64,000 nucleotides of DNA, taken from Perkinsus olseni (lineage: Eukaryota > Perkinsozoa > Perkinsida > Perkinsidae). The position numbers and the translations under genes are program-made. This document shows positions 15,000-63,505 of the stretch, piece after piece. The stretch is taken from positions 1 to 64,000 of the forward strand of contig JABANP010000218.1 in assembly GCA_013115135.1 (NCBI GenBank). Reading direction: 5' to 3'. A model generated the notes under the pieces. That model worked only from the letters and a program-made list of their open reading frames with translations. It was not told the DNA's origin and ran no database searches. Each line of letters begins with the position of its first letter. Positions within the stretch are counted from its first letter, which is position 1.

Positions 15000-15691
15000 C
15001 CGTCGTAGTGGTAGTAGAACATCTTATCGCATCTTGATGAGGCTGCTGGTCTCTCAGATGTATTCTTACGATGTTACACCATTACCATCATTGCATTGTC
15101 GTCATTATAACTCCATAGTAATACTTCTACTGCTAGTAGTATTATCATCATCATCATACCAGGATTCCTCTCTCGATACTGTTCATACTGCATCATCATC
15201 ATCATTATTCTATACAGCAAGTAGTACCCTTGTACTCTCCTTTTAGTACTTGATGGTGTACCAACATCACCAGCATCGTGGAGTTCTTGTGTTGCTACGT
15301 CCTCATCACGGTCATCTTCGAATACCATAACCCGCCCTACTCCAATCCTAGTTTTCTTCTCCCACTGATGTCCTCCCCTCTCCGTGTGTGATGAAGTCAG
15401 CTGGTAGTAGTAGTATTATTACGATGGTAGTATTTCCGGTAGTAGTACATCCCGAACACTCTTCCGTCACTCCTGCAGGAAGGCTTCTTCTTCCCCCCTT
15501 CCCATCATGCTTGACAGGTATCCCGAGACGATGCCGAGTACACCTCCTGTATACTCGGTTGAGTGCCGATGACGATGCTGATGATAATGATGATGTTGGT
15601 ACTACTGTACTCGTCCCTAATGTAGCGTTACCTAGTCTCTATTACCTGTTCACAACTTTGGTATCCTCCATACATAGCCTCAGACGACGAC
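15000..15691. other. Ambiguous stretch, possible exons on either strand
   Basis: Open frames exist on both strands: plus 15034-15246 and 15388-15720, minus 15074-15328 (MVFEDDRDEDVATQELHDAG). None has a recognisable domain and they are mutually exclusive in part. I cannot decide which, if any, is real. Confidence 0.25.
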
Positions 15692-16153
15692 ATGAGGGAG
15701 GGTTTACCACAGAAGAGTAGGATTGGGTTGATGTTGAGGATATCGTTGGTGTTGAGCGTTGGTGTGGTTATTGGAGCTGGGGTGTACGTTGCAGTGTGGT
15801 CTATCATCACCCCGAGGCTTGCTATGTTGGACAGTCATGAGGAGGTAAGGGTGTTATATAGGTATGGAGTCTAGCAATGATCTAGTAGGTGATACAGAAG
15901 ATAACAAGAAGCATTGAGGGTCTGCTGGATGAAGGGAGGCTATCTACTGACTATGAGAGAGATGAAGGCATACGTGCCATTATAATAGAAGAATCGGCGA
16001 AGGCATCATCATCAGCAAGAGGTCATCATCATGGGTAGCATCCTCAAGGGTCCATCAGCATTATCCTCAGGAATGGTCATGTCTAGACTCGAAGATCAGC
16101 TCAACCGTGCAGAAGGCATGATGAAAGATATATCATCCACACTCGATGTATGA
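15692..16153 (+). CDS. Small membrane-anchored protein, 3' exons
   Basis: One exon ends just before GTAAGG at about 15845 and encodes RIGLMLRISLVLSVGVVIGA followed by GVYVAVWSII, a single transmembrane helix, then PRLAMLDSHEE. The next exon, from about 15890, encodes QKITRSIEGLLDEGRLSTDY and DEGIRAIIIEESAKA. A final segment, SRLEDQLNRAEGMMKDISST, ends LDV at 16153. The helical segments after the membrane helix look like a short coiled coil. The first exon may start further upstream. The join near 16,030 does not keep frame. No family recognised. Confidence 0.35.
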
Positions 16154-16373
16154 CCACCTTGTCCATCACCACCACCAGCAGCAGTTCTGTCGTGTTTACA
16201 GCGGCTCATCACCACCATCGGGTGACGGTTTCACGGCGACGTATCCGTTGCCGTGTGTGATTTTCGGGCGAGCGCTGTCTTATTGTTAATCCACCACTAC
16301 TAATTTCATTACAGCTCTGTGACATTTCTAGTGTAGTTTTTCTCCTCTTCCTCCTCCTCCCCCCCACTACATC

Positions 16374-16759
16374 ATGCAGGTTATGATGAAGCTATTCGTC
16401 CTTCTTTTCGGCATGATCCTCGCTACCACCACGTAGTACTACTCCTCCACTGTGTTGCTGCTACAGCCATTGTTAGGTTGGAGGGCTGTAACAAGGCTGC
16501 TCATGATGTTGAACATCATGAACCCAAACCTGAACAGCATGAACAACACGCTGTTCATAAGGAAGAGAAGAGGGTCATCGAAGAGGGAGGAGGCCCACAT
16601 GAGGAGAAGAGGGCGAAATCCCTGAAACAAGTATGGTTATTATCATCATGCTAGGCCTACGGTATTATTATGTTCAGGTTGATGATGGTAGAATCATCAC
16701 TGGCCAGCATCATCGATATGGTTATACATGTAGTCTTTGGTATTGGACTATATGATTAA
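16374..16759 (+). CDS. Small secreted charged protein, 105 aa, three exons
   Basis: Exons 16374-16432, 16477-16630 and 16655-16759 join in frame to exactly 106 codons including the stop. Signal peptide: MMKLFVLLFGMILATTT. The middle is rich in His, Glu and Lys (VEHHEPKPEQHEQHAVHKEE). The C-terminus is hydrophobic and helical (ESSLASIIDMVIHVVFGIGL). The second intron is only 24 nt (16631-16654), beginning GTATGG and ending GCTAG. There is no known family. The C-terminal helix could insert in membranes, but that is inference. Confidence 0.5.
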
Positions 16760-48449: not shown

Positions 48450-49690
48450 CTTCACAGGTCCAGAGCCCCCCGTTTTGGTTAACATACAAAATAACGCATT
48501 TTGCAGGAACTGCGCATGTGCGATAGCGCACGCCGCCCAGTGCTACAATCGGGCTGTTCAATAGACAAGCCCCCCACAGGTCCTTACGCGTCAGCGTCGC
48601 GTGGGGGTGGCCGGCTTTGCCGGTAGTACCGGCAAGGAAAGGTACAAAATCCAAGGAAGCGCGTGCGACAGGGGGGCAAAAGCAACAGAAAAAAACTCCT
48701 GGATTGCGGGTGAAGGCAGGCGGGAAACCAGAAACCCCTCCCGAAACCGGAAGCAGGGCAACCCGATCCCGGAACTGTTACCCAAGTCAACCAGAAACCC
48801 GAACTGTTGCCCAGGTAATGCAGATCCCTGAAAACGCTTCCTTGGATTTTGTACTTCTCCCTTGGATTTTGGGAATTACCCATAATAATATCTGATGATG
48901 ATGCCATACCAGTCAATATGTCCGACCGAAATCAATAATGAGTGATCCGCGAGTTTCCCGCAGCTAAGGGGTAAGTCACCGCGGACCGCGGTTATCGCGA
49001 TGAGGGCCGCCCTAGCAGGTAGACCTTTCCAAAAGCCAGGAACGTGGCGCTGTAGACGTCCCCCAAAGTCTCGAGTGCTACAGGAGCGGGAAAAAATCAG
49101 GCTTCAAGGTAACGGTAGGGCGGGTCCACCAAGGCGGATCAAGGCGGATGACTTTGGCAAGTCGCGGAGCCGGTCGAAGCCTTAGAGCAGGAAGACGTGA
49201 TGACTAATTCATGTATTGCTCGTTATTGAGGAACGTTCCAATCTGAGGCTATATTCAGTAAGATATTAGGTATTCCTGTACGCTGCGTCTCGCAACTCGT
49301 ACCAGTTGGAGCTAGCACTAAGAAAACCCGATATTCAAAAAATTATTTGAGGGGGCTGTAGAAGTGGAACAGTACAGGTGGCGAGAGCTACTGCCAAAAC
49401 CATCTCTCTCTCGCTCTGGACCGTATTCGACCAGGCGACAGACCAACAACCGGCAGGCAGATGACTCATAAATTATGAGGTCGGGCCCCGACCGTCGGGG
49501 TACGCAGGTTGAGTAACTCAGCACAGGAGACCAGCACTGGGCTGAGTTTGTTTGTTTTCTCCAAACCGCTCTACTTTACTCTCAGGTCTTCAATCCGCCT
49601 CTCCCACAGATTCCTATCTTGGGCATTGGCTTGCGACGGGTTCGCCGCCCTTGAATCCTCTGCAACGAGGTCTATCCGGGTGTATCGCGA
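48450..49690. other. GC-rich repeat-type DNA without recognised genes
   Basis: Beyond the 213-bp inverted-repeat element I see no coding sequence here. A palindrome CCCCGACCGTCGGGG lies near 49,490, and a pyrimidine-rich tract (CTCTCTCTCGCTC) near 49,405. The sequence resembles the following mobile block in composition. Confidence 0.4.
48642..48854. mobile_element. Short element with 20-bp perfect terminal inverted repeats
   Basis: GTACAAAATCCAAGGAAGCG at 48642-48661 is repeated as its exact reverse complement at 48835-48854. The 213-bp unit between and including the arms is GC-rich and has no ORF of its own. A second partial copy of the arm core (CTTGGATTTTG) follows at about 48,860. The structure is MITE-like. 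No target-site duplication was evident. Confidence 0.6.
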
Positions 49691-50640
49691 TTCGTCCATG
49701 ATCGATTGGTCCACTGCAGCTTCGATTCAAGATTGTTTCGTACAAATTTCGGTTCATTCATGATCTTTTCGTACATCGAAAAAGTGCATGTTTTGGTCAC
49801 GATTTTTTCATCCATAACCGGTTTCGTACACGATTATTTCGTCCATGGGCGGTTGATTCAAAGATATGCTCGTTGTGATCTATTCGGCCACGATCTTTTC
49901 GAAAAAAATTGATTCGTCCCATAGTGGTTCGTACATATGAAACTTACGACACGGAAATGTTTATCGGGTGGGATGAACCCACGAACTCGGGATTACGAGC
50001 ATTAGCTACTAACCTACTCCCCTGTAAGACTTCTACTGAAATCCAACAAAGTACCGCCCATGCGATACCCAACCTATTCAACTTGGCTCCATTCATGTTT
50101 GGAGCCTCTAGGCACTGGGATCACCACAGAGACAAGTTGTCTCAGACAACCTGATGTGGGGGAGTGCTAGATCGTCACCACTGGTGACTCACCAGTAGAG
50201 GCGGCGCTGAGATTCTTAGGTCGGAGTAGGTGATGGTAATAGCGGAATTGGTAGAGCTCCCGGCTTGCATGACGATGGTCCCAGGTTCGAATCTGGGTAG
50301 GGGTAGATGGAAGTGATGGCAGTGGTGCAGTGGCGCTACTTTTAGACATATGTGACGCCGCGGCGTCACATATGTCTAAAAGTAGCGTGGACGAAACTCA
50401 CGTGTACGAAAGGCTTGTACGAAAAGCCCTGGACGAAAGAAGCGGAGTTAGAGCATGATTGGACGGAACGGCGTGGATGAAAGAATCATGTACGTAAAAC
50501 CCGTGGACGAAAGAGGTGTGTATGAAAGAAGATGGACGGAAGTAACATGGGCGAAACAAGCAGGATGAACCCTACCATGGATGAAACAATCGTGGACGAA
50601 ACCTACAACGTATGAAACAGCGATGTATGAATGGAGGTTC
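49691..50640 (+). mobile_element. Foldback-like element A: inverted 15-bp arrays, tRNA-like core, hairpin
   Basis: Left array (49,691-49,937) has degenerate units such as TTCGTCCATG and TTCGTACACG. The core (49,938-50,333) has a tRNA-like promoter: A box TAGCGGAATTGG at 50240-50251 and B box GGTTCGAATC at 50284-50293. The tRNA fold itself is degenerate (8-nt T-loop, unpaired anticodon stem). Next is a perfect 54-bp palindrome (50334-50387), and then at once a right array (50,388-50,640) of units like TGGACGAAA and TGTACGAAA, inverted relative to the left array. No protein is encoded. Architecture matches elements B, C, D and F, but the core sequence differs. A Pol III-transcribed, foldback-type non-autonomous element is my inference. 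Confidence 0.6.
50334..50387. repeat. Perfect 54-bp palindrome
   Basis: The 27-base left arm starting CGCTACTTTTAGACATATG is followed without spacer by its exact reverse complement, ending AAAAGTAGCG. The centre is CCGCGG. It separates the core of element A from its right-hand 15-bp array. Such a sequence can form a cruciform in DNA or a long hairpin in RNA. Confidence 0.97.
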
Positions 50641-50644
50641 CCCA

Positions 50645-51395
50645 GTCTAGGGTGTATTACGATTCGTACACCGGAAACTCGTACACTATCGCTTCGTACA
50701 CGGCTCGTACACTGAATACTCGTTCACTCATTGAATTCATACATCGTCATTTCGTACACTTGAGACTCATACACGTAATTCTCGTACTCATGATACTCTT
50801 ACATATAATACTCGTTCATGTAGTGAGTCGTACACTTAAAGTTCGTACACGTGAATCTCATACACTGGCAACTCGTACACGAGCACGACTCGTACACTAT
50901 GCTTGCTGAGTCGCATTTTTGCGCCGCGCTGGGTGCAATGGCGGAGCGAAGGAAGTTATATTCTCTATAGGGGGCGAACTGTTCGCGCCACTCTGTGAGA
51001 AAAAGCTTATTAGTGCGAGTGGTATGGTGGTTAAGGTCGCGGACTCTTGATCGAAAGACCACAGGTTGGATCCTACGTGCAGGGACTCCCTTACAAGGGA
51101 GGAAGTAGAGTGGTGCTAAGGGGCGGGAGAGCGCCCCTGGGAGGAAACTGAAGATGAGAGTGTATGAAATGCCAGTATACGAGTTGAAAGTGTACGACTA
51201 TTATGTGTACGGGTGTTATATGTACGGGTATTACGTATACGAGCATCATGTATACGAGTTTTATATGTACGAATCTCTTGTGTATGACTTTTCGGTGTAC
51301 GAGCATTTCGCGTACGATTAGAAAATGTATGAGTATTGGAGACATGAGTCGAAAATGTACGACTATTTGGTGTACGAAACGTGAACATCCCGGAG
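50645..51395 (+). mobile_element. Foldback-like element B
   Basis: The left array (50,663-50,905) is of TCGTACAC-type units with 15-bp period. The core (50,906-51,118) holds a small hairpin (GCGAACTGTTCGC), an A-box-like TGGTATGGTGG and a mutated B box (GGTTGGATCC, 51064-51073). A GC hairpin AGGGGCG/CGCCCCT with loop GGAGAG is at 51119-51138. The right array (51,157-51,385) is of GTGTACGA-type units with 15-bp period, ending CGTGAACATCCCG. It abuts element A on the left and the inverted element C on the right. Nothing in it looks protein-coding; long ORFs across the arrays arise because 15 is a multiple of 3. Confidence 0.62.
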
Positions 51396-52036
51396 GGGAA
51401 GGTCACGACTCGTACAATGCACCAAATACCCGTACACAGAATACTCATACACCGGGAGGTGGTACATGTAGAACTCGTTCGCACAAAACTTGTACACATA
51501 ACGTTCGTACACATAACACTCGTACACGTAATGCTCGTACACCATCATTTCGTACACCATCATTTCGTACACCCTGCGGAAATTTCTTCAGGCAAGTCGT
51601 GGAGCCGCTCCGCGACTTGCCTGAAAAATTTTCGAGCTCTGCCGCGCCTTGCTAGCAGCTTATCTCCTCCCTGACAGGGAGATCCACACCACATACACTA
51701 ATAAACTTTCACTCACCCACTGGCGCGAACAATTCGCTCTCTATGGATAATATTACCTCCTTCGCTCCCCCATTGCTCTCAGCGCGGCCCAAAAATGCGT
51801 CCCAAGCAGCGTAGTGTACGAGTCGTGCTCGTGTACGAGTTGATGGTGCACGAGTTTTATGTGTATGAGTTTTACGTGTATAAGTTTTATGTGTGCGAGT
51901 TTCATGTTTATGAGTTTCAAGTGTACCAAATGACGGTGTACGGATCCAAGAGGTGAACGAGCATTCAGTGTACGAGTCGTGTACGAAATGAAAGTGTAAG
52001 AGTTTTCGGTGTACGAATCGTGAGACACCCGGGCAC
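51396..52036 (-). mobile_element. Foldback-like element C, inverted relative to B
   Basis: Read on the minus strand it parallels B: an array (52,020-51,812), a core (51,811-51,626) sharing the GCGAATTGTTCGC hairpin and TTTATTAGTG segment with B and D, then a hairpin (51625-51587), then a second array (51,575-51,408). About 50 nt covering the A and B boxes are deleted compared with B and D, so this copy has probably lost its promoter. Its array terminus CGTGACCTTCCC meets the terminus of B, giving a tail-to-tail pair. Confidence 0.6.
51587..51625. repeat. 39-bp near-perfect palindrome
   Basis: The 18-base arm TTCAGGCAAGTCGTGGAG and its complement are separated by CCG; one base pair is mismatched. 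It takes the same position (between core and outer array) as the hairpins of elements A, B, D and F, but has a different sequence. Confidence 0.95.
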
Positions 52037-52690
52037 CCTATGGTCCGAGTCCTGGATCCGGCCGAGGTGTTCATCAAGGCTCGCACTCTTCTCCTTGAGA
52101 AGTACAGTGAAGACTGATTTTCTGTGTACGAGAAGCTTCAGAAACGCCGTCTCGAAGCTGGGGAAACGGTTGAGGATTACCTGGGCTTCGGGTGGACTGC
52201 CTTGCCTAGGCAGGTTCCCCCTGAAAAAAACGATATCCTCACATGTGTCCAAATGTGGCACGGTTTGCCGGACGTGCCGAGTCTGACTGCCGTTCGCGCG
52301 ACCGGAGGCTCTCTCGGAGGCCATCCCGCGTACTCGTCACGAATTGGCATCGCTTGTTGGCAAATATGTGGCGCACTTTTCCATTGGGGGATGGTTAGGC
52401 ATCGCGGCGGCAACGTTCACACGGTTGTGCGCGTTGTTTGAGCAGGGTAAACAGTATGAAGACTCCTTGCCGCCGATCTGGCTTGGTTTGCATTACAAGT
52501 TCCGCGCGCACTTGCAGCCGCGGGAGATCCGGTACACGGGGCCTGGCAAGTCCTGCCGTCGGCCAGCTGGGCTCCCCACTGTAACAGCAGTGCCACGGCT
52601 ACGGCCGCTGTTCTCTTTCTCCGCCCCGTTCGGGTCGAGAACCGTTGTTGGTTACGACCTCGGCGCTGCCGTTGGCACATGAAAGTGCTT
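52037..52690 (+). pseudogene. Retroelement gag-like fragment with nonsense codon
   Basis: The plus-strand frame from 52037 reads MVRVLDPAEVFIKARTLLLE, then KYSED, a TGA stop, then in the same frame SVYEKLQKRRLEAGETVEDY followed by LGFGWTALPRQVPPEKNDIL and MWHGLPD. The E-x-Y-L-x-x-F...L-x-R...F-x-x-G-L-P spacing is that of a retrotransposon gag (capsid) domain. The frame then decays. It is wedged between foldback elements C and D. Probably the remnant of a Ty3-like element. Confidence 0.45.
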
Positions 52691-53094
52691 GAATGTGAAT
52701 CTGTCATCCCCGGTTTGAGTGTCGTGCTGGATTTTTGCAAAGCTCTCCGTGTCGGGGAACCTCCATCCATACATCGCGGTTTCATACATTGCAGGTTTCG
52801 TCCACAATTGTTTCATCCATGGTAGGGTTCCTCCTGCTTGTTTCGTCCATATCACTTCCGCCCATCCTCTTTCATACACACCTCTTTCGTCCACGGGTCT
52901 TACGTACATGATTCTTTCATCCACGCCGTTTCGTCCAATCATGCTCAAACTCCGCTTCTAACTCGTACACCATGCTTGCTGAGTCGCATTTTTGGGCCGC
53001 GCGCTGGGTGCAATGACGGAGCGAAGGAAGTTATATTGTCTATAGGGAGCGAACTGTTCGCGCCACTCTGTGAGAAAAAGTTTATTAGTGTGAG

Positions 53095-53148
53095 TGGTAT
53101 GGTGGTTAAGGTAGCGGACTCTCGATCGGAAGACCGCAGGTTCGAACC
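53095..53148 (+). promoter_or_regulatory. tRNA-like internal Pol III promoter (A and B boxes)
   Basis: TGGTATGGTGGTTAAGG resembles a tRNA D-arm/A box, and GGTTCGAACC is a consensus B box. Spacing of about 30 nt between boxes is normal. The intervening sequence does not form a convincing anticodon arm, so this is tRNA-derived and not a tRNA gene. Confidence 0.6.
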
Positions 53149-53205
53149 TATGTGCGGGGACTCCCTTACCAGGGAGAAGGGAGGAAGCAGAGTGGCAGTA
53201 AGGGG

Positions 53206-53235
53206 CGCGAAAATTTTTTCGAAAAAATTTTCGCG
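53206..53235. repeat. Perfect 30-bp palindrome
   Basis: CGCGAAAATTTTTTC is followed directly by its reverse complement. It replaces, in an otherwise homologous context (AGTAAGGGGCG upstream), the unrelated hairpin of element B. Confidence 0.97.
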
Positions 53236-53263
53236 GAGTGTACGAGATGACGGTGTACGACTT

Positions 53264-53368
53264 AAAATCCCGGCTCTTCGTCCGCGACCTTGCGTAACAT
53301 ACAATGGGAAAAGAGCTCAAGTCGCGAATCGATCAGCCGGGGAGGAGACACTCCTACCAGGCGACCCC
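53264..53368 (+). repeat. 105-bp direct repeat, copy 1
   Basis: Begins AAAATCCCGGCTCTTCG and ends CCAGGCGACCCC. Copy 2 is at 53553-53657, with only three base differences seen, all in the first 17 bases. A weaker third copy (GAGCTCGTGTCGCGAATCGA...) is at about 54,190-54,280. The first two bracket the left 162-bp repeat. Confidence 0.9.
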
Positions 53369-53390
53369 ACCATTGAGGGAGGGACGGGTG

Positions 53391-53552
53391 GGTCAAAAAC
53401 ATCGACAGGACACCCGGCACTACCGTGCCAGACGCTGACCTCTCACGATGAACGGCTCGGTGACGTACACCGCCCCGCACGCATACACACGATTGTCTCC
53501 TGCGGCGGACTACCGTGGATTTTTCTTCGACACACGGAGTGTATCGATTACT
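53391..53552 (+). repeat. Long direct repeat, left copy (162 bp)
   Basis: Starts GGTCAAAAACATCGACAGG and ends GTATCGATTACT. Its partner, 59203-59366, is almost identical: one substitution and a 2-base insertion were seen. The pair is 5.8 kb apart and brackets a block holding a tyrosine recombinase fragment. They could be LTR-like or split repeats of a retroelement. Confidence 0.9.
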
Positions 53553-53657
53553 AAAATCCCGTTTCTTCGCCCGCGACCTTGCGTAACATACAATGGGAAA
53601 AGAGCTCAAGTCGCGAATCGATCAGCCGGGGAGGAGACACTCCTACCAGGCGACCCC
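53553..53657 (+). repeat. 105-bp direct repeat, copy 2
   Basis: Near-identical to 53264-53368. It follows directly on the GATTACT end of the 162-bp repeat. Confidence 0.9.
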
Positions 53658-53752
53658 CATCGTTGAGATCGATTCGAGACGACGAGGTCTCTTCCCATGC
53701 CCATCGTAGTAGGGGGCAGAAGAGGCTGCTGTGCAGTTGAGGTTAGATTGAG

Positions 53753-54303
53753 ATGAATGAGCCACCGACGCTTGGCTGGTTACTGGCAGAATGGCAAGAC
53801 TGGGGAGAAAAAGAAACACTGCGGGCTAAACCCACGGTGCCGCGGTGGAAAGGAGAGGGCGACAGAAATGTGGCACGGTTGAAGCAAGATGCGTGGGCGG
53901 TCGCAGCGCGCAGCATCCGCCCAGCCACGGCGAAGACGTATGCGGTGGGGATGCGGTCGTGGATCAGGTTCACGGTCGAGTTGACTAAAGCCGACAAGAG
54001 GATGCGGGCACCGATGCCAGCCAATCTACAGGAGATGCAGGACTGGATTACTAGCATAGGAAACGCTGGGACCGCTAAGACGTACTTGATGGGGTGAAGA
54101 AGGCGCATGAGCTGCCGGGGTATGAGATCAACACGAGTAGCCCCATGCTAATAGCAACGGTGAAGGGACTCGAAGCCGCCGCGCCACCCATGGGAAGAGA
54201 GCTCGTGTCGCGAATCGAACAGCCGGGGAGAAGGCACTTCTGCCGGGCGAACAACGTTACGATCGAGTCGAGACCGAGCTCAGCTGCCCAATCGTGTGCA
54301 TGA
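53753..54303 (+). pseudogene. Tyrosine recombinase fragment (core-binding domain)
   Basis: The frame from 53753 begins MNEPPTLGWLLAEWQDWG and runs into IRPATAKTYAVGMRSWIRFT, PANLQEMQDWITSIGNAGTA and KTYLMG. The frame then breaks in a GGGG run, and continues at 54094 with KKAHELPGYEINTSSPMLIA and TVKGLEAAAPP. This is the helical SAM-like core-binding half of a phage-integrase-type recombinase, as in DIRS/Ngaro retroelements or Cryptons. The catalytic half (R...HxxR...Y) is not found in good frame, so this copy is broken. The flanking direct repeats favour a YR retroelement. Confidence 0.55.
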
Positions 54304-57300
54304 AAGCACATAGAACGGGGACGAACATGACGGGACGTGACCAAGTTGAAGACGCTGTGATACGCCCCGGAGCTCCGACTAAAAAAACATAATGTGGTCT
54401 GGTTCAGCACTGCATGCGCAGAAAATGCTGCGAGTGATGGAAATCCCGTCGTTGCGAGTTCCATACGAGGTGAAGCACACCTGCTGTAGGTCCTACAGGG
54501 TAGGGCCACTACGTTGCAGGACTCGTGCCGGTTTAACGGCCAAACTAACCGAATGGGGCAACCCCGCCGCCTGAGGCTGAGGTGAATCATAGCTGTGTCG
54601 AAGCTGCTGGATACAGAGGAATGCGATGGAGCAAGGTCGCCCCCAGGCTGGAGGAGACACTGACTGGGGGCTCCAGTCAGTCACTGGTGAGGTTGCGCGT
54701 TGATGCAAATGTCGCGCCGAGAAGCGGAAGTTCCGCTTCGGAACTGTAGCATAGTTAAGTGGCGAACGCAGAGGTGCCCTGGCAGTACTGCGGCCCAAAG
54801 CACCGCATGGTCGCTGCATGGTGTCACGCAAGCGACTCCGCTCACGATGGGAATGAGGAGCCCCTGACTAGCGAGATTAACGAGTGCTTACCGAGTGCTG
54901 TGCCGTGGATACGGTGTATGCGCGACGCTTCCAAGCGTAGCGCCGCGTGGGGTGAGACGAACGTAGAAGGAGATCGGAGACGCTGAGTGCAGCAAGCACA
55001 GCAGCTGTGATATCCTCCGACTCGGGGGCCCCGAGGAGAAGCTGGTCGGGACTCCCGACCAGCCTCCCGACTCGGGAGGCCGTATGCGCGAGGTGCTAGT
55101 ACAACCCCGACACCCACCGAGGAAGAATCTCCGGGAAGGCCTCGTGAAGGCCGTGCCTACTGCCGAAGCAGCACGAGTCAGTGGCCGGAGAAGAGGGTAG
55201 GAGAAACTTCCCCGTGGGAAGCGACACCAGCCGCCGGAAGGTTGTAGAGAGAAGGAAGCAGAACCCGGACACGTCTGCGGCTCGGACTCCGAGCAACACC
55301 TGATGCTCGATGAACTGCTTGCCGGGTTGGTGCACCAGCAGCGCAGATCCTGCGCCGCAGAATGGTGGCTGCTCGGGTAGCGGCAGTGCAGTACCAACAA
55401 GCGGTAATCTGCCCGCCCTGTACCGTCGGGTGAGCAGTGCTCACTGAGCACGAAACGGAGTCTACGCGGGAAGCGTCACCAGAGTGGAGGACAAAAACCA
55501 TGAGCGAAGTAGACGACTCAAAACGACGTGAACGGGCACGTAGCTCCACGAACTGTGTGACACAAGAGCTGGTGGCTGTGGACCACAGTCTGTGGTATGA
55601 GACAAAGGAGTTGTCACAAATCACGCGTATAAAGTGGACACACAAATGGTCGCGAGTCGCCACTGGAGATAACGACACCGAAGCTCATGACGCAACTAGC
55701 GTCACGTAACGAGAGAATGAGTCCGGCGGACTCAGTCCGCGCAGGCGCTACAAACGACAGAGTAGCCGCGGTGGCTGAACAGTGCAGCGGAGCCTGGAGG
55801 AACTCCAGGAGTTCACCTCCTCGACCGCCTTCGCGACTCGCGGGCGGGCGGGAACCCAGCGGGAGCCTACCTCTGGCTCTGAGGCTGAGAGCGAATGAGT
55901 AAGCCGTTCCGCTAGTCTGCAAGAGCAAGACACTATCAGTGGAAGCTTCCATTGAGCAGGACGCCATCATGCACAGGATGAAGTCCGTCCACCCAGGTGC
56001 CATGGTGCAGAGCAGTGAGTCATCCCTAAGCTGGGAGCCCTGACCCGTGCAAGGTGCAGCGGGGCCAACATGGCCGGGCCAATTGCGTCAGGCGATCCGA
56101 ACCACTGCCGGGCAACGGACTGGGGTAGCGCGGAAAGGACCGAGTCGGTCCGACCGACGCGGTGTGCAGTGACTGCCGCAGGTACTCGAAGCGAGCGAAC
56201 AGCCCATCGCGGAAACCTGCGCTGTCCACACTGCGGAACACACAGGGACCAACTCTGGGGTAGGCACAGCGTGGACTTGCAAAGCTGCAAACCCAAGGTC
56301 CATGCGAACTGCGCGAAGGACGAACCCAAGAGACTTGAGGAAACAGAGCCCGGTCAACCCTTGGTCCGCACGAAGATAGCGGGAAAGCAGACCGGGCAGT
56401 GCCGGATATGTGTCGGTGCAGCCAATGCGGCAGAAGGGTAGGGTAACCCTACTAGGGTAATGTTTGCCAAGCGCGGAGGGTGTACAGTGCACGGGTCGTC
56501 GTGACGTGACTCGGAACCGTGAATCCGGAGATGTCCTAGTGTCGATCCCGGATCCACCTGGTGTCGATCGGGCGGACCGCCCGAAGTAAGAGTACGCGAC
56601 GAGAGCGAGGCGGCCTGTCACAGGAGCAAGACAAAAGGAGCCTCGAGACCTCTAGGGGGCAGGTCCTCGAGAACCTCAGATCCACGTGAGGCTCCGTGAT
56701 GTGACCACTTGGGCGGTCCCAGAGCAGAAGAAATGCAAGACAGAGAGCCAGATTATGGCGTACGAGCTGGACGATGGTAGGTACTGATCCCCGCAGGGTA
56801 AGGAAGCAGACTCATCGCGACGCAGAAGCGGTAACGGCGAAGGGGAGCCGAGGAGCAGGCCAGCTAGTAGCCACGAATCGGATAGAGGGTGCCACCCACT
56901 AGCCCACTGGGAGGGGTCGGGGACAAGATAGCGGCAAAGCCGCTGAAGGTGTACGCGAGTAGTGTAACAAGCGGAGCTAATGCGGCCGATGCCCCCTCGA
57001 AGGGGAACCCAAGACCGCAAGAGAGGAAGGATGTGCCACGAAAGGCGTAGAGGCGTGTACTAAGGTGGTAGTATGAACCCCCGAGCCTGGGGGCCCCGGG
57101 AAGGAGCAGTCCCTCTTAGAGGGAACTTCCCTCAGGAAGCAACTAGGCCGAAGCAGACGTGTAGTAGTGGAGTAAGCAGGGAAGGAGAGAACCACGGCTT
57201 GGCGGGATCCCCGCCGAGAAACCGAGCAGCCGATAAGGCGCTCAAGGCTAAGCGAGGGAACCCGGGAACCGCAAGTCCGGAAGGCGGGAAGCGTCCGCCG

Positions 57301-57785
57301 GGAACATCGGGGCGAAGAGGGAGGCGGCGCCGCAGCCGACGGCAACCGCTGCTATGGCGGATGTGAACCGCGTAGTCTGCCAGATGTGAAAGACTCCCAC
57401 AGCCTGTGGGAGGCTCTCACAGCCTGTGGGCCACAGGGAGGATATCGCGGTGGACCACAACGGCACGTTGTCGCACGGGTAGAGTCGGAAGCGAACCCGG
57501 CTGACAAACCCTCCCGAGGTGAGGGTGTAGGCCGGCGATGGAAAAAAAAGGTTGTGTTCCATCAGCAGTCGTGCACCCGTGAGGCACTGAACCGCCGGGC
57601 CTGTCGCTACAGGTGGTGGTCAGCTGGGAAGTTGCAGGAGAAGTTCTCCTGGACAACAGACTATAACACGGCGCCAAGGAAGTTCCCACAACGCGCAGAG
57701 AGTGTTGGCACAACACTGGGAACGTTGGGATCTGGCGAGTCACAGAGACCCGTAGCATGAGGTACGGCGCCGCCGTTACGGCGGT
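54304..57785. other. GC-rich element interior, no intact gene
   Basis: Many ORFs of 60-190 codons overlap on both strands with no consistent frame, typical of GC-rich noncoding or decayed sequence. One plus-strand stretch at 56,070-56,440 includes LRCPHCGTHRD and VHANCAKDE, a possible zinc-knuckle remnant. I found no reverse transcriptase motif. It lies between the 162-bp direct repeats and is probably decayed element body. Confidence 0.35.
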
Positions 57786-58170
57786 CCAAGCCTCGAGGTA
57801 GTCGAGTCGAGTACAGACGGAGGCGCCAAGAAACAAGCAGCGAGGAGGAGAGCACGGATCGTGCATGAGGGGGAGGGAAGTCAGAGTGGCGCGTGAACGT
57901 GACAGCGGGCCACTGGCAAAGCACGAGGGAGCGGGGTAGTGTGCAAGGCACGACCCCTAGGCAAGGCGCAAGGAGCGGTCCCAGCCTCGAGTACGGGCGG
58001 AGGCGCCAGGGATCCTGGCCCAGGGGACACGCGCCGGGGAGAGGAGCACGGAGCGCGCACGAGAACGAGGGGAGCCAGAGGGGCACGTGAGCGTGACAGC
58101 GTACCACTGGCAAGGCACGAGGGGGAGAGGAAGTGTGCAAGGCACGACCCCTGGGCAAGGCGCAAGGAGT
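57786..58170 (+). repeat. Two-copy tandem repeat of about 190-195 bp
   Basis: Both copies begin CCTCGAG and share GGAGGCGCCA, CGTGAACGTGACAGCG or its GAGCGTGACAGCG variant, CCACTGGCAA, and GTGTGCAAGGCACGACCCC. Copy 2 (from about 57,980) has an extra GC-rich segment. The copies are imperfect. Confidence 0.7.
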
Positions 58171-58825
58171 GACGGGGGCAGTGGAGCAAGGCGAGAATCA
58201 GCCGCAAAGGGAGTCGCAGGTCCAGCTCGGCGCGTTGTAGAAACCGTCTAGGACGCCCTTTCTACGAGAAAGGGAGCAGAAAGTCTACAGCGCACCCGAC
58301 AACAGAGTGGCCGACACCAACTCGGCAGGTGAAGAAGGAGTCAGCCGCCTCGTCGGACGTGAACGGCGTAGTCGGGCGGTTGTGGGAATACGTTGCCGTG
58401 AACCACATCGCGATGCATGTCTCCCGAGTAGCCTCAGAAGCAAACCCAGCGGACAAGCCGTCCCGAGGCAAAGCTGGGGAGACACACTGGGAATGAGTGG
58501 CGTGTGTACCCCCGCCGGGGGTCCCCCGGCGGTCGTACATCCGTGACGCCTAGAGAAGGAGAGAACCCGCGGGGGTCCCCCCCGGGGGAGAAGAGGAGCG
58601 CACGTGGGCCCCAGGAAGTGGAGACAACTTGTCTCCACTTTCTCCTTGTATTCCACTGTCTCTGTGCATGTCTCAGACAAGCACAGTTTCGTAACGCCTG
58701 TGTGTTGAGTCAAGTGGTAACCCGGGGGTGAAGTGCTGCACGGGTGCGTGCATGGGAGCCACAGTGGCTCAGCCACTGGCGGGAGGCGGGTAGCACGGCA
58801 GGAGGGAGGCAAAGTGTGCCAAATG

Positions 58826-59118
58826 GGAGCGTGAGAGTCCCGAGAGTCGTGAGAGACTGCAGGTGAGGGAGGTAACACGCCAGGAGGGAGGCAGAGTGTG
58901 CCAAAGGGGAGCGTGAGAGTCCCGAGAGCCGTGAGAGACGGCAGGTGAGGGAGAGCCCAATGGGAGCGTGAGAGTCCCGAGAGCCATGAGAGACGGCAGG
59001 TGAGGGAGAGCCCAATGGGAGCGGGAGAGTCCCGAGAGCCGTGAGAGACGGCAGGTGAGGGAGAGCCCAATGGGAGCGTGAGAGTCCCGAGAGCCGTGAG
59101 AGACGGCAGGTGAGGGGG
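58826..59118 (+). repeat. 55-bp tandem repeat array
   Basis: Units contain GAGAGTCCCGAGAGCCGTGA and GACGGCAGGTGAGGGA. The CCCAATGGGAGC marker recurs at 58956, 59011 and 59066, exactly 55 bp apart. Earlier units at about 58,826 and 58,908 are interrupted by a second motif (CAGGAGGGAGGCAAAGTGTG / CAGGAGGGAGGCAGAGTGTG). It gives misleading Pro/Ser/His-rich ORFs on the minus strand. Confidence 0.88.
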
Positions 59119-59202
59119 AGCCCCAAGGAGGAGAGGGCGGCGGAGCAAGGTGAACTCAACCTGGCGGGAGCTGCAAACCGAGCTCGTGTCCGGAGCGACG
59201 TA

Positions 59203-59366
59203 GGTCAAAAACATCGACAGGACACCCGGCACTACCGTGCCAGACGCTGACCTCTCACGATGAACGGCTCGGTGACGTACACCGCCCCGCACGCATACAC
59301 ACGATTGTCTCCTGCGGCGGACTACCGTGGATTTTCCTTCGACTAACACGGAGTGTATCGATTACT
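59203..59366 (+). repeat. Long direct repeat, right copy (164 bp)
   Basis: Right partner of 53391-53552. It is followed after 11 bases by the isolated 15-bp array at 59,378. Confidence 0.9.
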
Positions 59367-59377
59367 GAAACTGGGGG

Positions 59378-59640
59378 TTGTGTACGAAATAAGAGTGTAT
59401 GAAATGCTGGTATACGAGTTGACAGTGTACGACTATTATCTGTACGGGTGTTATATGTACGGGTATTACGTATACGAGCATCATGTATACGAGTTTTATA
59501 TGTACGAATCTCTCGTGTATGAGTATTTTGTGTATGACTATTTGGTGTACGAGTATTTCGTGTACGATTAGGAAGTGTATGAGTATTGGAGACATGAGTC
59601 GAAAATGTACGACTATTTGGTGTACGAAACGTGAACATCC
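59378..59640 (+). mobile_element. Isolated right array of a foldback-like element (E)
   Basis: About seventeen GTGTACGA-type units with 15-bp period. It closely matches the right array of element B (51,157-51,395), including TACGACTATTAT, TACGGGTGTTATATGTACGG and the end CGAAACGTGAACATCCCG, with whole 15-bp units gained or lost. There is no core or hairpin beside it. It is most simply the missing right end of element D, displaced by the 6.1-kb insertion 53,264-59,377. Confidence 0.62.
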
Positions 59641-61980
59641 CGTTAGGGAATCGTTGCATGTGTTGGGTGCTCAAGGTCCACTATGGGCGTTGCCAGAAGG
59701 ATTCTCGGCCAATGTTATAGGGTGTGTGCCATTGGTCCTTGTGCGACACTATGGGCTCCTGAGAGAGGGCCTTCACTCGGACGACCCTATCGGAGGTAGT
59801 CACATTCTCAGTAACACCGGCACTGTTTCGGAACTAGCACGCCTGGAGGATGGCCACGCGACCATTACCTATGGTTCTGGTTACGGTCCTACTTACCCTA
59901 TGATTTTGGAAGGATGCGACGGTATATCGGATCGTGGGGCGTTGGTTGAAGGATCGCCAGTCGAGCATCGTCTTCATCAACGAGATCCCCGTGATGTCTT
60001 ACCCACGGGCGACTCTCGAACCCTCCTGATTTCGAGGATTAGGGGCTGCCGGGAGGTTACTACGGCGGGTGTATCTTCCTTGGGTAACCAAGAGGGCCTA
60101 TTGGGAGAGCACGCGGGCCACACTCGAGGCATGGTATCATTAGAGGCACCATATGACTTTCGAGTTGATATTGGTATCGTAGGGAACCTCGACAGGGTAT
60201 TGCCATTACCCCCATCAAGTTCTGGAAGGGAACGTGTCCATATGGTGGGGACTGGAGAGGATCAATGGGTGATGTCTTCTATGGACAACAATCCTCGGTA
60301 TGGTGGTGTTGGTGGTTCTGGTGGTGTCATGGGGAGAGCGGATGTTGGTAACGACGATGGTGCCGCTGTGAAGGGCACACCTTGTACCATTGGTATGGCT
60401 GCGAGTAAAACTGCTATCACTACAGTAATTCCTACTACAAGCTCAGTATGCTTTTATATGTTATCGATTGGTAAGGCTGTCCGTGAGGGCGACCTGCCTC
60501 ATTCGTCGACCTCTGTCGGTCGGCGAGTGCAAGAGACTGCACCATTACCACTTGAAGAATTAAATGATGCAAGGTGCTAAGGAAGGATAAAGAAGTAAGT
60601 ATGGAAAAGGGACGCAGAAGTACCGCATCCCTTCAAGACCCCCCAAGCTCCCCCCGGTCACTCCTCAAGATCCGAGAGATAAGGATGAAGCCGAGAAGGA
60701 AAAGGATTATGTATCCTTGGATGGATCGGATAAGGATCAAAGTAAGCAACGCGGGCAACGGGATGGGGGAAGGAGGGATGGATTAAAGGATTGGCCACCT
60801 AAGGATAGGAGTGGCCGGAGCGAAGTTAAAAGAGCAAACGAACGAGCGATCGAACCATAGGGAACCGAAGGAGGGAGCGACGAAGAGGCGAGAAGTTGAG
60901 TAGAGGAAGTAGCCGAGGGAGATATAAGGAGGACTCTAGAGACCATAATCAAGGGTACCCCGTGCTCAGTGACGGGTCGAGTGAATATAGACGTGGAAAG
61001 AGACGAGGTAGAGCTACACGTCGGTCTCGCAAGAAGGGTTCGCCATCGCCTAGCGACTCGAGTTCCTCGGGTTGTAATCGACGTGATAGGGCACGAAGAC
61101 GTTATGAGAGCAGCAGTGGAGATTCCTCCGCGAGTAATTCGATCTCACAGAGTGATATGAGGTATAAATCGACGAGAGGGTCGCATTATCGTCCGACGCG
61201 AAGGACGCATAGGAAGAGAAGTAATTGTGATGGTTGTGGGTCGGCGAAATGTAGGGATCCTATCACTATAAAGGAGTTCGATGCGAATCGACGAGAGGGT
61301 CGCATTATCGTCCGACGCGAAGGACGCATAGGAAGAGAAGTAATTGTGATGGTTGTGGGTCGGCGAAATGTAGGGATCCTATCACTATAAAGGAGTTCGA
61401 TGCGACTAAGGGTGACCACAACGAGACTCTCCAACAGATTGCTAGAGACCCCAAGAACGGTTATTCTGACACTGCTACTAAGGCTTCTACTACGGAGGTG
61501 ACTGAGGCTGTTTCTGGCGCTACTGCTGCCGGTGATGCGAAGGTTACGACTCCCCAGGCGGATACCTCTGATAATAACGGTTCCTCTTCTAGGTGGGATA
61601 AGAACTGGTATACCACTTCCCCCAAGTGGAGTAAGGGTTGGTATGATAACTCCAATTCTGCTTCTAAGGATGCTGCTGTTCTACTGCTCCTGTAGCTGGA
61701 ATGAGACTCCTAAGCCTGATGGTAATGTACTACCACAACCTGTATGGGACTCTCCTCCTACTGCTATGCATGATAAGGAAGTGCAAGGTGGTTCCAGTTG
61801 ATCTAAGTCAGTATTTCTTAGCGACGCTATGAAATCCACTTGTGAGATGGTTCTGCTAAGGTGAAGTCTTCTGAGAAGGGTAAGAAGAAGAAATCTAAGA
61901 AGAAGTCTAAAAAGTCTAAGGATAAGGAGGATGGTTCTTCAAGCTCTTCTGGTTCTTCGAGTAGCAGTGATAATGAATAA
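59641..61980 (+). pseudogene. Retroelement gag-like gene, frame broken
   Basis: The plus strand is open from within the array to 60580 (LPEGFSANVIGCVPLVLVRH, GGSHILSNTGTVSELARLED and so on). In shifted frames it continues with highly charged segments (SERDKDEAEKEKDYVSLDGS), an Arg/Ser-rich block (RRGKRRGRATRRSRKKGSPS), a Cys-containing NCDGCGSAKCRDPITIKEFD, RWDKNWYTTSPKWSKGWYDN, and a Lys-rich then Ser-rich tail ending SSDNE at 61980. A 119-bp tandem duplication breaks the frame at about 61,290. The basic, Ser-rich, nucleic-acid-binding look suggests a gag protein, but no known domain is proven. Confidence 0.4.
61167..61404 (+). repeat. Perfect 119-bp tandem duplication
   Basis: AATCGACGAGAGGGTCGCAT starts at 61167 and again at 61286; the copies are identical to GATGCGA. 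119 is not a multiple of 3, so the second copy shifts the reading frame of the gag-like gene. Confidence 0.96.
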
Positions 61981-62515
61981 GATCATGATGATTGTGAGGT
62001 TATTGAGTATTTCTATTTCGGCATTGTACGGTCAACGCATATTGTCAATATGATATCGTATGTCGTTTGACTGTTGCTATGGTATATATGGTATTTTTTC
62101 CGTGTTGGATTGAAGTCGCCAATAGTTGAAATTGGGTTATTTCACGCGGGCAACATGCGGTTTCAGCGCAGTGTACGGAGACCTGTTAACTAGTATGGTT
62201 GATCTGTCTCTTGTATGATAGTATTTTTAGAGTCAGTCTTTTGTGGCAGGAGGGCGGATGCTGTGGTAGAGCATTATACCATAATCTTAATGAGTAGCCT
62301 TACGACAAATTGTATGCGTACAGCATATTATTAGAAGTAATCTATTCTTTCATAGCGTAGACAACTATTGCACGCATACATAAGGTACGACCCCTTCGTG
62401 GCCTAGTATTACCAGTGGGCTTGACTACCTGATTGGGACACATCCTTGCTTGGGGCTTGACGGTATTCACAATCCGTGAACCGGATCAAAAGTGTTTGGC
62501 ACTTTAGTGCGGTGA
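61981..62515. other. No recognised feature
   Basis: AT-richer sequence after the gag-like gene. No coherent ORF, RNA gene or repeat was identified. Confidence 0.4.
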
Positions 62516-62520
62516 GGATC

Positions 62521-63505
62521 ATATCGTACAGTTGCAACTCGTAGAAACTCTGCTCGTGTACCCCAAATTCGTACAGTTTCACCTTATACAGTTTCCAGTC
62601 GTACAGTTTCGCTTCGTACATTGTCATTTCGTCTTGTTGCACTTAGTGCAGTATCATTCCGTACAGTGTCGAATCTTACAGTGTCCACCAGTACAGTGTC
62701 ATATCGTACAGTGTCCGCTCGTGCAGTTTCACATAGTACAGTGTCATATAGTACAGTTTCAACTCGTACAGTGCCAAATCGTACAGTTTCACCTCATACA
62801 GTGTCAAACCGTACACCTTCCTCTCGTACACCCACGATCTCGTACAATCCCGCCGTACAACCGCGCGCTTCGCGCGCGCCACTGCCCCTGCCGCGTCCAC
62901 CGTCGACATCGGCCAACTAATTTTGAAGTATCCGCGAATTGAACCTGGGAGCACCGCTTGCCAGCAGGCCCCCCGTCCGCGCGAACACTTTGCCTCACCG
63001 AAACTCGTTTCCGCCAGCGAAATTCACAGTTCAGTAAATGGCAGCAACGCTCCGCCTGAGGGGAATCATTTTTCATTCCGCATCTCAAGAAAATGTGTAC
63101 GCATCGTGTCTAGTCATTTTCCCTGAAATGACTTCGCATTGTACATGTAGAATTTACTAACCAACGCTGTATCTGTTGCAACTGTACTGAACGACACTGT
63201 ACCTGCAGCAACTGTACGGTTCGACACTGTACGAAATGACACTGTACTGAACGACACTGTACCTGCAGCAACTGTACGGTTCGACACTGTACGAAATGAC
63301 ACTGTACTGACTGCAACAAGATGAACTGACACTGCACCATAAGACACAAAATGACTTGCAACTGAACCAGTTGACACTGTACGAGTTGCAACTGTACCAT
63401 ATGTCACAAGATGAAAGTCGGCTGTACGGATTATTCTTGTACCACTTTAGCTGCGCACCAGCTGAGACCTGTACCAGTTGACACTGTACGATATGATACT
63501 CACCC
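62521..63505 (-). mobile_element. Foldback-like element F with CACTGTACGA-type arrays
   Basis: The left array (62,521-62,860) has about 22 units of CGTACAGTG plus six variable bases. The right array (63,170-63,505) has the inverted form CACTGTACG plus six. It includes a perfect 60-bp duplication (four units) starting at 63181 and repeated at 63241. A GC hairpin CGCGCGC-TTC-GCGCGCG is at about 62,863-62,879, next to the left array. The core (62,880-63,165) read on the minus strand has a B-box-like GGTTCAATTC (62936-62945). Hairpin position and array polarity match elements A-D, but both core and unit consensus are different. Confidence 0.6.

What the first reader, a model, noticed from the sequence alone, without database searches (positions are those of the whole stretch)
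49691..63505. A family of foldback-like elements: inverted 15-bp arrays around a core and hairpin
Five copies (A 49691-50640, B 50645-51395, C 51396-52036 inverted, D 52754-53263 plus 59378-59640, F 62521-63505) share one plan: outer array of TCGTACAC-type units, core, hairpin, outer array of GTGTACGA-type units. Reading outward from the hairpin the array always runs GTGTACGA, never the reverse. A, B and D have tRNA-like A and B boxes in the core, F has only a B-box-like sequence, and C has lost both. A, B/C/D and F have unrelated cores and different unit consensuses, so the architecture, not the sequence, is conserved. Drosophila FB elements also have tandem-repeat inverted termini, but I know of none that combine these with tRNA-like promoters and an adjoining hairpin.
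Basis: partly seen in the sequence, partly recalled or inferred. Interest (0 to 1): 0.92.

Follow-up and report, generated by a model that had tools for sequence, protein, structure and literature searches.

The report
Mutator transposons with built-in tRNA-like promoters
Repeated DNA elements in the genome of a shellfish parasite (likely Perkinsus olseni) share fixed ends, inverted arrays of a 15-letter repeat and, inside, a tRNA-like pair of boxes; Mutator-type transposase genes lie between the same kinds of ends, so these are likely jumping genes, and the boxes are predicted to act as an RNA polymerase III promoter, which would be unusual for this kind of transposon.

Summary
The pattern is real: it is a set of foldback-like Mutator (MULE) DNA transposons in a 61.5-Mb assembly inferred to be Perkinsus olseni. 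Families A, B/D and F have fixed ends (GGGTG.../CGG...) and 8-9-bp target duplications: A 20 of 26 copies, B 12 of 32, F 7 of 10 (mismatched flanks: 6/650, 2/992, 0/90). A MULE gene lies between B-type ends in C159 and, by position, between A-type ends in C359. A/B boxes at tRNA spacing occur in 26 of 26 A copies, 24 of 29 B-family rows, two close MULEs and a distant one, pointing away from the GGGTG end; none folds as a tRNA. Between C159 and C24, gene and array are ~80% identical but the stretch with the boxes is unalignable apart from the B box, which suggests replacement with the promoter kept. Strong palindromes exist only in A, C and D; D is an A/B chimera; F's boxes are weak; the parts read of C359 and C551 show no boxes. 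Nearest in print: Tm1 of root-knot nematodes, without a tRNA-like part. Pol III use is predicted, untested. New variant of a known kind.

The parts
49678..50644 (+). Element A, 967 bp, GGGTG end at 49678, CGGGG-type end at 50644
   Evidence: 30 copies cut out, 26 with both ends, 20 of 26 with perfect 8-9-bp target duplications; 53 end pairs genome-wide. The window copy itself has only 5 of 8 matching flank bases
49691..49937 (-). Left 15-bp array of A
   Evidence: Period 15; 6 TCGTACA-type and 0 reverse units
50240..50294 (+). tRNA-like unit of A: A box TAGCGGAATTGG, B box GGTTCGAATCT, 44 bp apart
   Evidence: Score 16 of 16; 26 of 26 copies score 15-16; not a tRNA for ARAGORN or cmscan
50334..50387 (.). 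Palindrome of A, 27-bp arms, with TTTT in the 5' arm
   Evidence: TTTT 45 bp after the B box
50390..50630 (+). Right 15-bp array of A
   Evidence: Period 15; 8 TGTACGA-type and 0 reverse units
50650..51391 (+). Element B, GGGTG end at 50650, CATCCC end at 51391; palindrome lost
   Evidence: family of about 40 scored copies; 12 of 32 flank pairs with perfect 8-bp duplications
51020..51074 (+). tRNA-like unit of B (A box TGGTATGGTGGT, B box GGTTGGATCCT)
   Evidence: Score 14
51396..52030 (-). Element C, inverted B-family copy without boxes; palindrome 51587-51625; left border approximate
52753..52955 (-). A-family CGGGG end that forms the left part of D
   Evidence: End pattern at 52753-52779 with 3 mismatches; read against A
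52956..53262 (+). B-family core of D: A box 53095, B box 53139, palindrome 53206-53235, first array units
   Evidence: Score 15; palindrome with 15-bp arms
59365..59643 (+). Continuation of the right array of D after the insert, ending CATCCC
   Evidence: sequence continues as in the uninterrupted B copies printed
62510..63505 (-). Element F: CGGTGAGG end left, GGGTGAG end right; B-box-like sequence 62936-62945 on the minus strand
   Evidence: Copies; 7 of 10 fetched copies with 8-9-bp duplications; box score 14 with A box 6 of 8

Best explanation
These are foldback-like DNA transposons, likely moved in trans by Mutator-superfamily (MULE) transposases whose genes lie between the same kinds of ends elsewhere in the genome, and families A and B carry a tRNA-like A-box/B-box unit that is predicted to be a working RNA polymerase III promoter. 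Shown by sequence: fixed ends; 8-9-bp target duplications; a transposase gene between B-type ends (C159) and, by position, between A-type ends (C359); and one order and orientation (GGGTG end, array, boxes pointing inward, palindrome where there is one, array, CGG end). The boxes are present in non-autonomous elements and in three transposase-bearing ones (C159, C24, C14). Inferred: the 15-bp units are likely repeated transposase-binding sites. The boxes would recruit TFIIIC and drive a short RNA of roughly 120-140 nt in A, D, C14 and L001 that ends at a T-run in or beside the palindrome; in C159 and C24 the RNA would run toward the transposase 3' end in antisense. I expect the unit to keep the element transcribed and its chromatin open, so that transposase can reach the arrays. 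I hold the classification at about 0.9 and the Pol III function at about 0.45.
For: Target duplications: A 20 of 26, B 12 of 32, F 7 of 10, with few in mismatched flanks. MULE domain between the ends of L069; C359 ends 2836 bp apart around MULE matches; D, D, E and a C/H pair invariant in seven aligned proteins. Boxes: score 14 or more once in 48.4 kb of array-free window (a tRNA-Val gene), against A, B, D, F, L069, L079, L119 of C14 and L001. 26 of 26 A copies and 24 of 29 B-family rows score 14 or more. A modules are never free among 40 scored. L069 and L079: gene 81.5% and array 80% identical, stretch between unalignable except 19 nt at the B box, yet boxes 44 bp apart in both. First TTTT after the B box 45-66 bp away in A, D, L119 and L001, and in or at the palindrome in 16 of the 18 B-family rows that keep both parts.
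Against: No expression data. No element folds as a tRNA. A matrix from host tRNA genes with free spacing gave weak support: p 0.014 A, 0.13 D, 0.19 B, 0.018 F, 0.076 L069, 0.030 L079, 0.002 L119, 0.33 L001; that matrix also scored real Val, Pro, Leu and His tRNA genes poorly. The consensus was recalled and its spacing window chosen after seeing 44 bp. No boxes in C, L008, the L081 3' side or the 316 bp read of C359. F's score is matched by an array stretch at 63218. L069 and L079 have no strong palindrome. L069 has no matching target duplication. In window copy B the first TTTT is 184 bp away, in F there is none.
Confidence: 0.6

Rival explanations
1. The tRNA-like unit is a passenger: an ancestral element picked up a tRNA or SINE fragment, as Pack-MULEs pick up host DNA, and it is carried along without function.
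For: Copies of one family share the unit by descent; in A it is no better conserved than the arrays; elements without it exist as copies (C, L008).
Against: L069 and L079 keep boxes at the same place, spacing and orientation although the surrounding stretch is not alignable; a MULE only 26% identical (C14) has boxes and a palindrome in the same relative order.
Confidence: 0.35
2. The elements are tRNA-derived SINEs that happen to carry repeat arrays and spread by reverse transcription.
For: A and B boxes at tRNA spacing.
Against: Fixed ends at both sides with short inverted similarity, 8-9-bp target duplications, the same ends around transposase genes, and no free copies of the A module among 40 scored.
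Confidence: 0.03
3. The arrays serve mainly as anti-silencing or boundary sites bound by a helper protein, as VANC proteins bind tandem motifs of VANDAL elements, and the boxes add TFIIIC as a boundary factor rather than a promoter.
For: VANC proteins bind short motifs set in same-orientation tandem arrays that change by repeat formation (PMC5735166, passages).
Against: Here the arrays run to both ends in inverted orientation, as in Tm1; no second long frame was seen in L069 apart from frames made of the arrays themselves.
Confidence: 0.15

Closest known systems
Tm1 (Mutator/Foldback, Phantom group) of Meloidogyne, PMC3169594 (abstract and passages read)
   Same: MULE transposase, foldback-like ends with ~14-bp internal units, asymmetric terminal motifs, target duplications of 8-10 bp, ~900-bp non-autonomous members with an internal hairpin
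   Different: The Tm1 hairpin is a histone 3' hairpin, not a long palindrome; the words tRNA and polymerase III do not occur in its text
Galileo (P superfamily, foldback-like), PMC3688188 (abstract read)
   Same: Long ends made of tandem units, several of them bound by the transposase THAP domain
   Different: P-type transposase; here a MULE domain
VANDAL MULEs of Arabidopsis with VANC, PMC5735166 (passages read)
   Same: MULEs with tandem arrays of a short motif
   Different: There the arrays lie in non-coding parts and are bound by an anti-silencing protein; here they form the inverted ends
Dada transposons of Perkinsus marinus, PMC3706591 (passages read)
   Same: DNA transposons of the same genus tied to tRNA genes
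   Different: Dada inserts into tRNA genes with 6-7-bp duplications; here the tRNA-like unit is inside the element and the targets vary

Membership tests
Mutator (MULE) superfamily | MULE-type DDE transposase between the element ends | tested here: met
   L069: MULE domain 31 bits, cut-off 27.6, between ends 3234 bp apart; C359 by position; catalytic residues invariant in seven proteins
Mutator (MULE) superfamily | Target duplication of 8-11 bp (PMC6446971, passage) | tested here: met
   A 20 of 26, B 12 of 32, F 7 of 10, all 8-9 bp; not seen for L069 itself
Phantom/Tm1 group | FLYWCH zinc finger before the MULE domain | tested here: inconclusive
   Match at 20.5 and 20 bits in P0001 and P0004, under the cut-off of 23.6; none in P0003
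Phantom/Tm1 group | Foldback-like ends with tandem units and asymmetric terminal motifs | tested here: met
   Period-15 arrays; GGGTG and CGG ends differ
Phantom/Tm1 group | Transposase falls in the Phantom clade of a tree | not tested
   No tree was built
Foldback/Galileo (P superfamily) | P-type transposase | tested here: not met
   The frame between the ends of L069 matches only MULE in Pfam
tRNA-derived SINE | Pol III boxes at tRNA spacing | tested here: met
tRNA-derived SINE | Retroposed copies with variable duplications and no defined inverted ends | tested here: not met
   Fixed ends and 8-9-bp duplications
Dada | Insertion in small-RNA genes with 6-7-bp duplication (PMC3706591) | tested here: not met
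   Varied flanks, 8-9-bp duplications
Pol III transcription unit | Transcript made by RNA polymerase III | not testable with these tools
   No RNA data held

The most novel reading that the evidence does not exclude
A lineage of Mutator DNA transposons has made an RNA polymerase III transcription unit a standing part of the element: the tRNA-like promoter gets replaced by unrelated ones but returns at the same place and orientation, and its hairpin-ended or antisense RNA, or the TFIIIC it recruits, controls transposition.
Probability: 0.33. Interest if true: 0.85.

Novelty: new variant of a known kind. Interest (0 to 1): 0.6.

Why it matters
DNA transposons are, from general knowledge, transcribed by RNA polymerase II. 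MULEs that keep a Pol III promoter in transposase-bearing and non-autonomous forms would tie tRNA-type transcription factors to DNA transposition, give tRNA-like repeats a way to spread without reverse transcriptase, and offer a comparison set for asking what tandem-repeat foldback ends do. The work also assigns repeats that looked like unexplained architecture to a known superfamily.

Tried and rejected
Rejected: tRNA genes (ARAGORN on 53 loci found tRNA genes only outside the elements, in L028 and L045; cmscan found no tRNA match in the loci given, and only the tRNA-Val gene in the window); free SINEs; P-type foldback; Dada target flanks. cmscan matches of the palindromes to microRNA families are far under the gathering scores and reflect the palindromes alone.

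A hypervariable 15-20-bp segment just before the palindrome of A (majority frequency 0.62 in one 20-column block against mostly 0.92-1.0 elsewhere) looked like copy-specific rearrangement. L050 and L062 share both flanks and agree at 3507 of 3566 aligned positions, yet differ strongly just there, with one-base indels close by; so I treat it as most likely a sequencing or assembly effect at a double hairpin. By eye I saw no compensated change in the palindrome arms; 6 of 26 copies have one mismatch inside the best-scoring palindrome. Of ten further copies read, four print the full palindrome and six have it shortened or lost.

A matrix test for promoter boxes with wide spacing was weak and is given under evidence against. 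L070, fetched as a second candidate for a transposase element, gave no Pfam match for its long frame. The 7618 first-look tRNA candidates (63 scored) were not followed. Of the 38 MULE matches in the genome most were not examined; arrays were looked for in L071-L078 by script without a clear pair.

Not in print: the listings showed no MULE with A/B boxes; led to Tm1; two searches were on the genome and on VANC. Papers: PMC3169594, PMC3706591, PMC5735166 and PMC6446971 seen as passages, PMC3688188 as abstract and section list, all others as search listings only.
Full report
Where it is. The window is the start of contig C133 in a 61.5-Mb assembly of 968 contigs. A transposase protein deposited for Perkinsus olseni (P0004, 100% identity over 40% of the query) lies on a contig of 76,069 bases, the length of C159 here. 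I therefore infer Perkinsus olseni, an alveolate.

The observation. The arrays have a 15-bp period at all nine tested stretches, and the units obey the orientation rule: 57 to 0 in left arrays, 0 to 62 in right arrays. The paired-unit pattern occurs 521 times in the genome and the backwards control never. Strong palindromes are present in A, C and D only; the best ones in B and F score 7 and 8. D is a fusion of an A-family end and a B-family core, split by a 6.1-kb insert. F's A box is poor.

Mobility. Thirty A copies were cut out; 26 had both ends, and L040, L041, L063 and L066 were dropped. A runs from GGGTGTACCGCG to GGTTCCCCG. Of 26 copies, 17 have perfect 8-bp and 3 perfect 9-bp duplications; allowing one mismatch, 5 and 1 of 650 mismatched pairs do. 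L050 and L062 are one locus on two contigs. B: 32 distinct flank pairs from 40 loci, 12 perfect at 8 bp, 16 within one mismatch, null 2 of 992. F: 10 copies of those listed were fetched at their ends; 7 have 8-9 bp, null 0 of 90, letting up to two terminal bases shift on each side. Genome-wide, 84 GGGTG-type and 69 CGGGG-type A ends form 53 pairs, 34 of them 943-976 bp long. The B-type GGGTG end is found at 105 places.

The transposase. Array pairs 3 kb apart led to L069 (C159): a 456-aa frame with the MULE domain between GGGTGTATCACG and CATCCC ends 3234 bp apart; its flanks do not match each other. L079 (C24) is an 86% identical relative in which one array was seen in the stretch read. L081 (C551) has a MULE frame beside F-type arrays, both of the GGGTGAG type as I read them. 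The A-type ends 2836 bp apart in C359 bracket MULE matches at 15086-16401; of that element I could read only 316 bases. The catalytic D, D and E and a C/H pair are invariant in seven aligned proteins; the FLYWCH match is under its cut-off. Of 18 protein matches in the genome, three are close: C159, C424 (99%) and C24 (86%).

The tRNA-like unit. With a degenerate A-box and B-box consensus (recalled, not from a call) at 41-46 bp spacing, the 48.4 kb of array-free window holds one place scoring 14 or more, the tRNA-Val gene, and seven scoring 13 or more. The cores of A (16), D (15), B (14), F (14), L069 (15), its truncated near-copy L080 (15), L079 (14), L119 of C14 (16) and L001 (14) reach 14; C, L008 and the L081 3' side do not, nor do the 316 bases of C359 (best 11). 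In F an array stretch also reaches 14, so F is weak. A first test with a matrix from host tRNA genes and free spacing was much weaker: only A, F, L079 and L119 fall under p 0.05. No element folds as a tRNA. In 26 of 26 A copies the score is 15-16 and the palindrome lies 3' of the B box; among 29 B-family rows (L018 appears twice) 24 reach 14. Forty of 40 scored A modules lie within 1.3 kb of an A end. Thirty-three of 40 scored B/D modules lie inward of a listed GGGTG end on the same strand, 318-405 bp away; of the other seven, two are D and its second copy in C133, C648 and C896 are B copies, and for C235, C469 and C625 no end was listed (100 of 105 places are listed). In C14 a MULE 26% identical to L069 has, 5' of the gene, boxes on the opposite strand followed by a palindrome with 24-bp arms, and a GGGTGTAT end on the other side. 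In each element with boxes the unit points away from the GGGTG end.

Replacement. L069 and L079 are 81.5% identical over 2105 bp of the gene side and 80% over 273 bp of array, yet the stretch between, which holds the boxes, is not alignable except for 19 nt around the B box. Neutral divergence at that distance should still align, so the stretch was likely replaced in one of them, and both versions have boxes 44 bp apart in the same orientation. This is the best hint of function, and it rests on one pair of elements.

How it likely works. Shown: ends, duplications, transposase genes between ends, order, orientation. Inferred: the transposase binds the 15-bp units many times, as the Galileo transposase binds its tandem units (PMC3688188, abstract). 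Predicted: TFIIIC and Pol III use the boxes. In A, D, L119 and L001 the first TTTT is 45-66 bp after the B box (the median wait from the start of a shuffled copy is 160-264 bp for these). In 16 of the 18 B-family rows that keep both boxes (score 13 or more) and a palindrome (score 15 or more; thresholds set afterwards) it lies in or at the palindrome. That would give RNAs of roughly 120-140 nt. In L079 it is at +240, at the transposase stop codon; in L069 at +292, inside the transposase 3' end on the antisense strand; in window copy B at +184; F has none. The role for transposition is my inference.

What is known. Tm1 of root-knot nematodes is the nearest: Mutator/Foldback, ~14-bp internal units, asymmetric 7-bp ends, 8-10-bp duplications in 45 of 53 complete elements, ~900-bp non-autonomous members with a histone hairpin. 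Its text does not contain the words tRNA or polymerase III. A survey of MULEs across eukaryotes mentions neither Perkinsus nor tRNA. Dada elements of P. marinus insert into tRNA genes, a different relation. I therefore file these as MULEs, a new variant because of the tRNA-like unit.

Noticed in passing
window 50328-50346 and the same place in other A copies: A 15-20-bp segment before the palindrome differs from copy to copy while the rest is conserved; two contigs of one locus (L050, L062) also differ there, so it is most likely a read or assembly effect at a double hairpin.
   Followed up: partly
window 53263-59364: A 6.1-kb GC-rich insert splits D; a stretch of about 160 bp is repeated near its two ends (53396 and 59204). 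Two frames tried have no Pfam match.
   Followed up: partly
G000 C133:66883-69018 and 78464-79717: Beyond the window the same contig carries inverted near-identical copies of F and D (99-100%), so the region is partly an inverted duplication.
   Followed up: no
G000 C35:309523-324234: Three array elements with the same unit order lie about 7.2 kb apart, which looks like a tandem segmental repeat.
   Followed up: no
L064, A element with target duplication GTTGAAAC: An A element sits inside an array of another element of this type, an example of nesting.
   Followed up: no
window 52287-52679: Frame with a match to DUF7047 (28.4 bits, cut-off 27), beside C.
   Followed up: no
window 61167-61405: Perfect tandem duplication of a 119-bp unit inside an Arg/Ser-rich frame without Pfam match.
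   Followed up: no
G000, whole genome: The tRNA search had 7618 first-look candidates, of which 63 were scored; many tRNA-like sequences may exist outside these elements.
   Followed up: no
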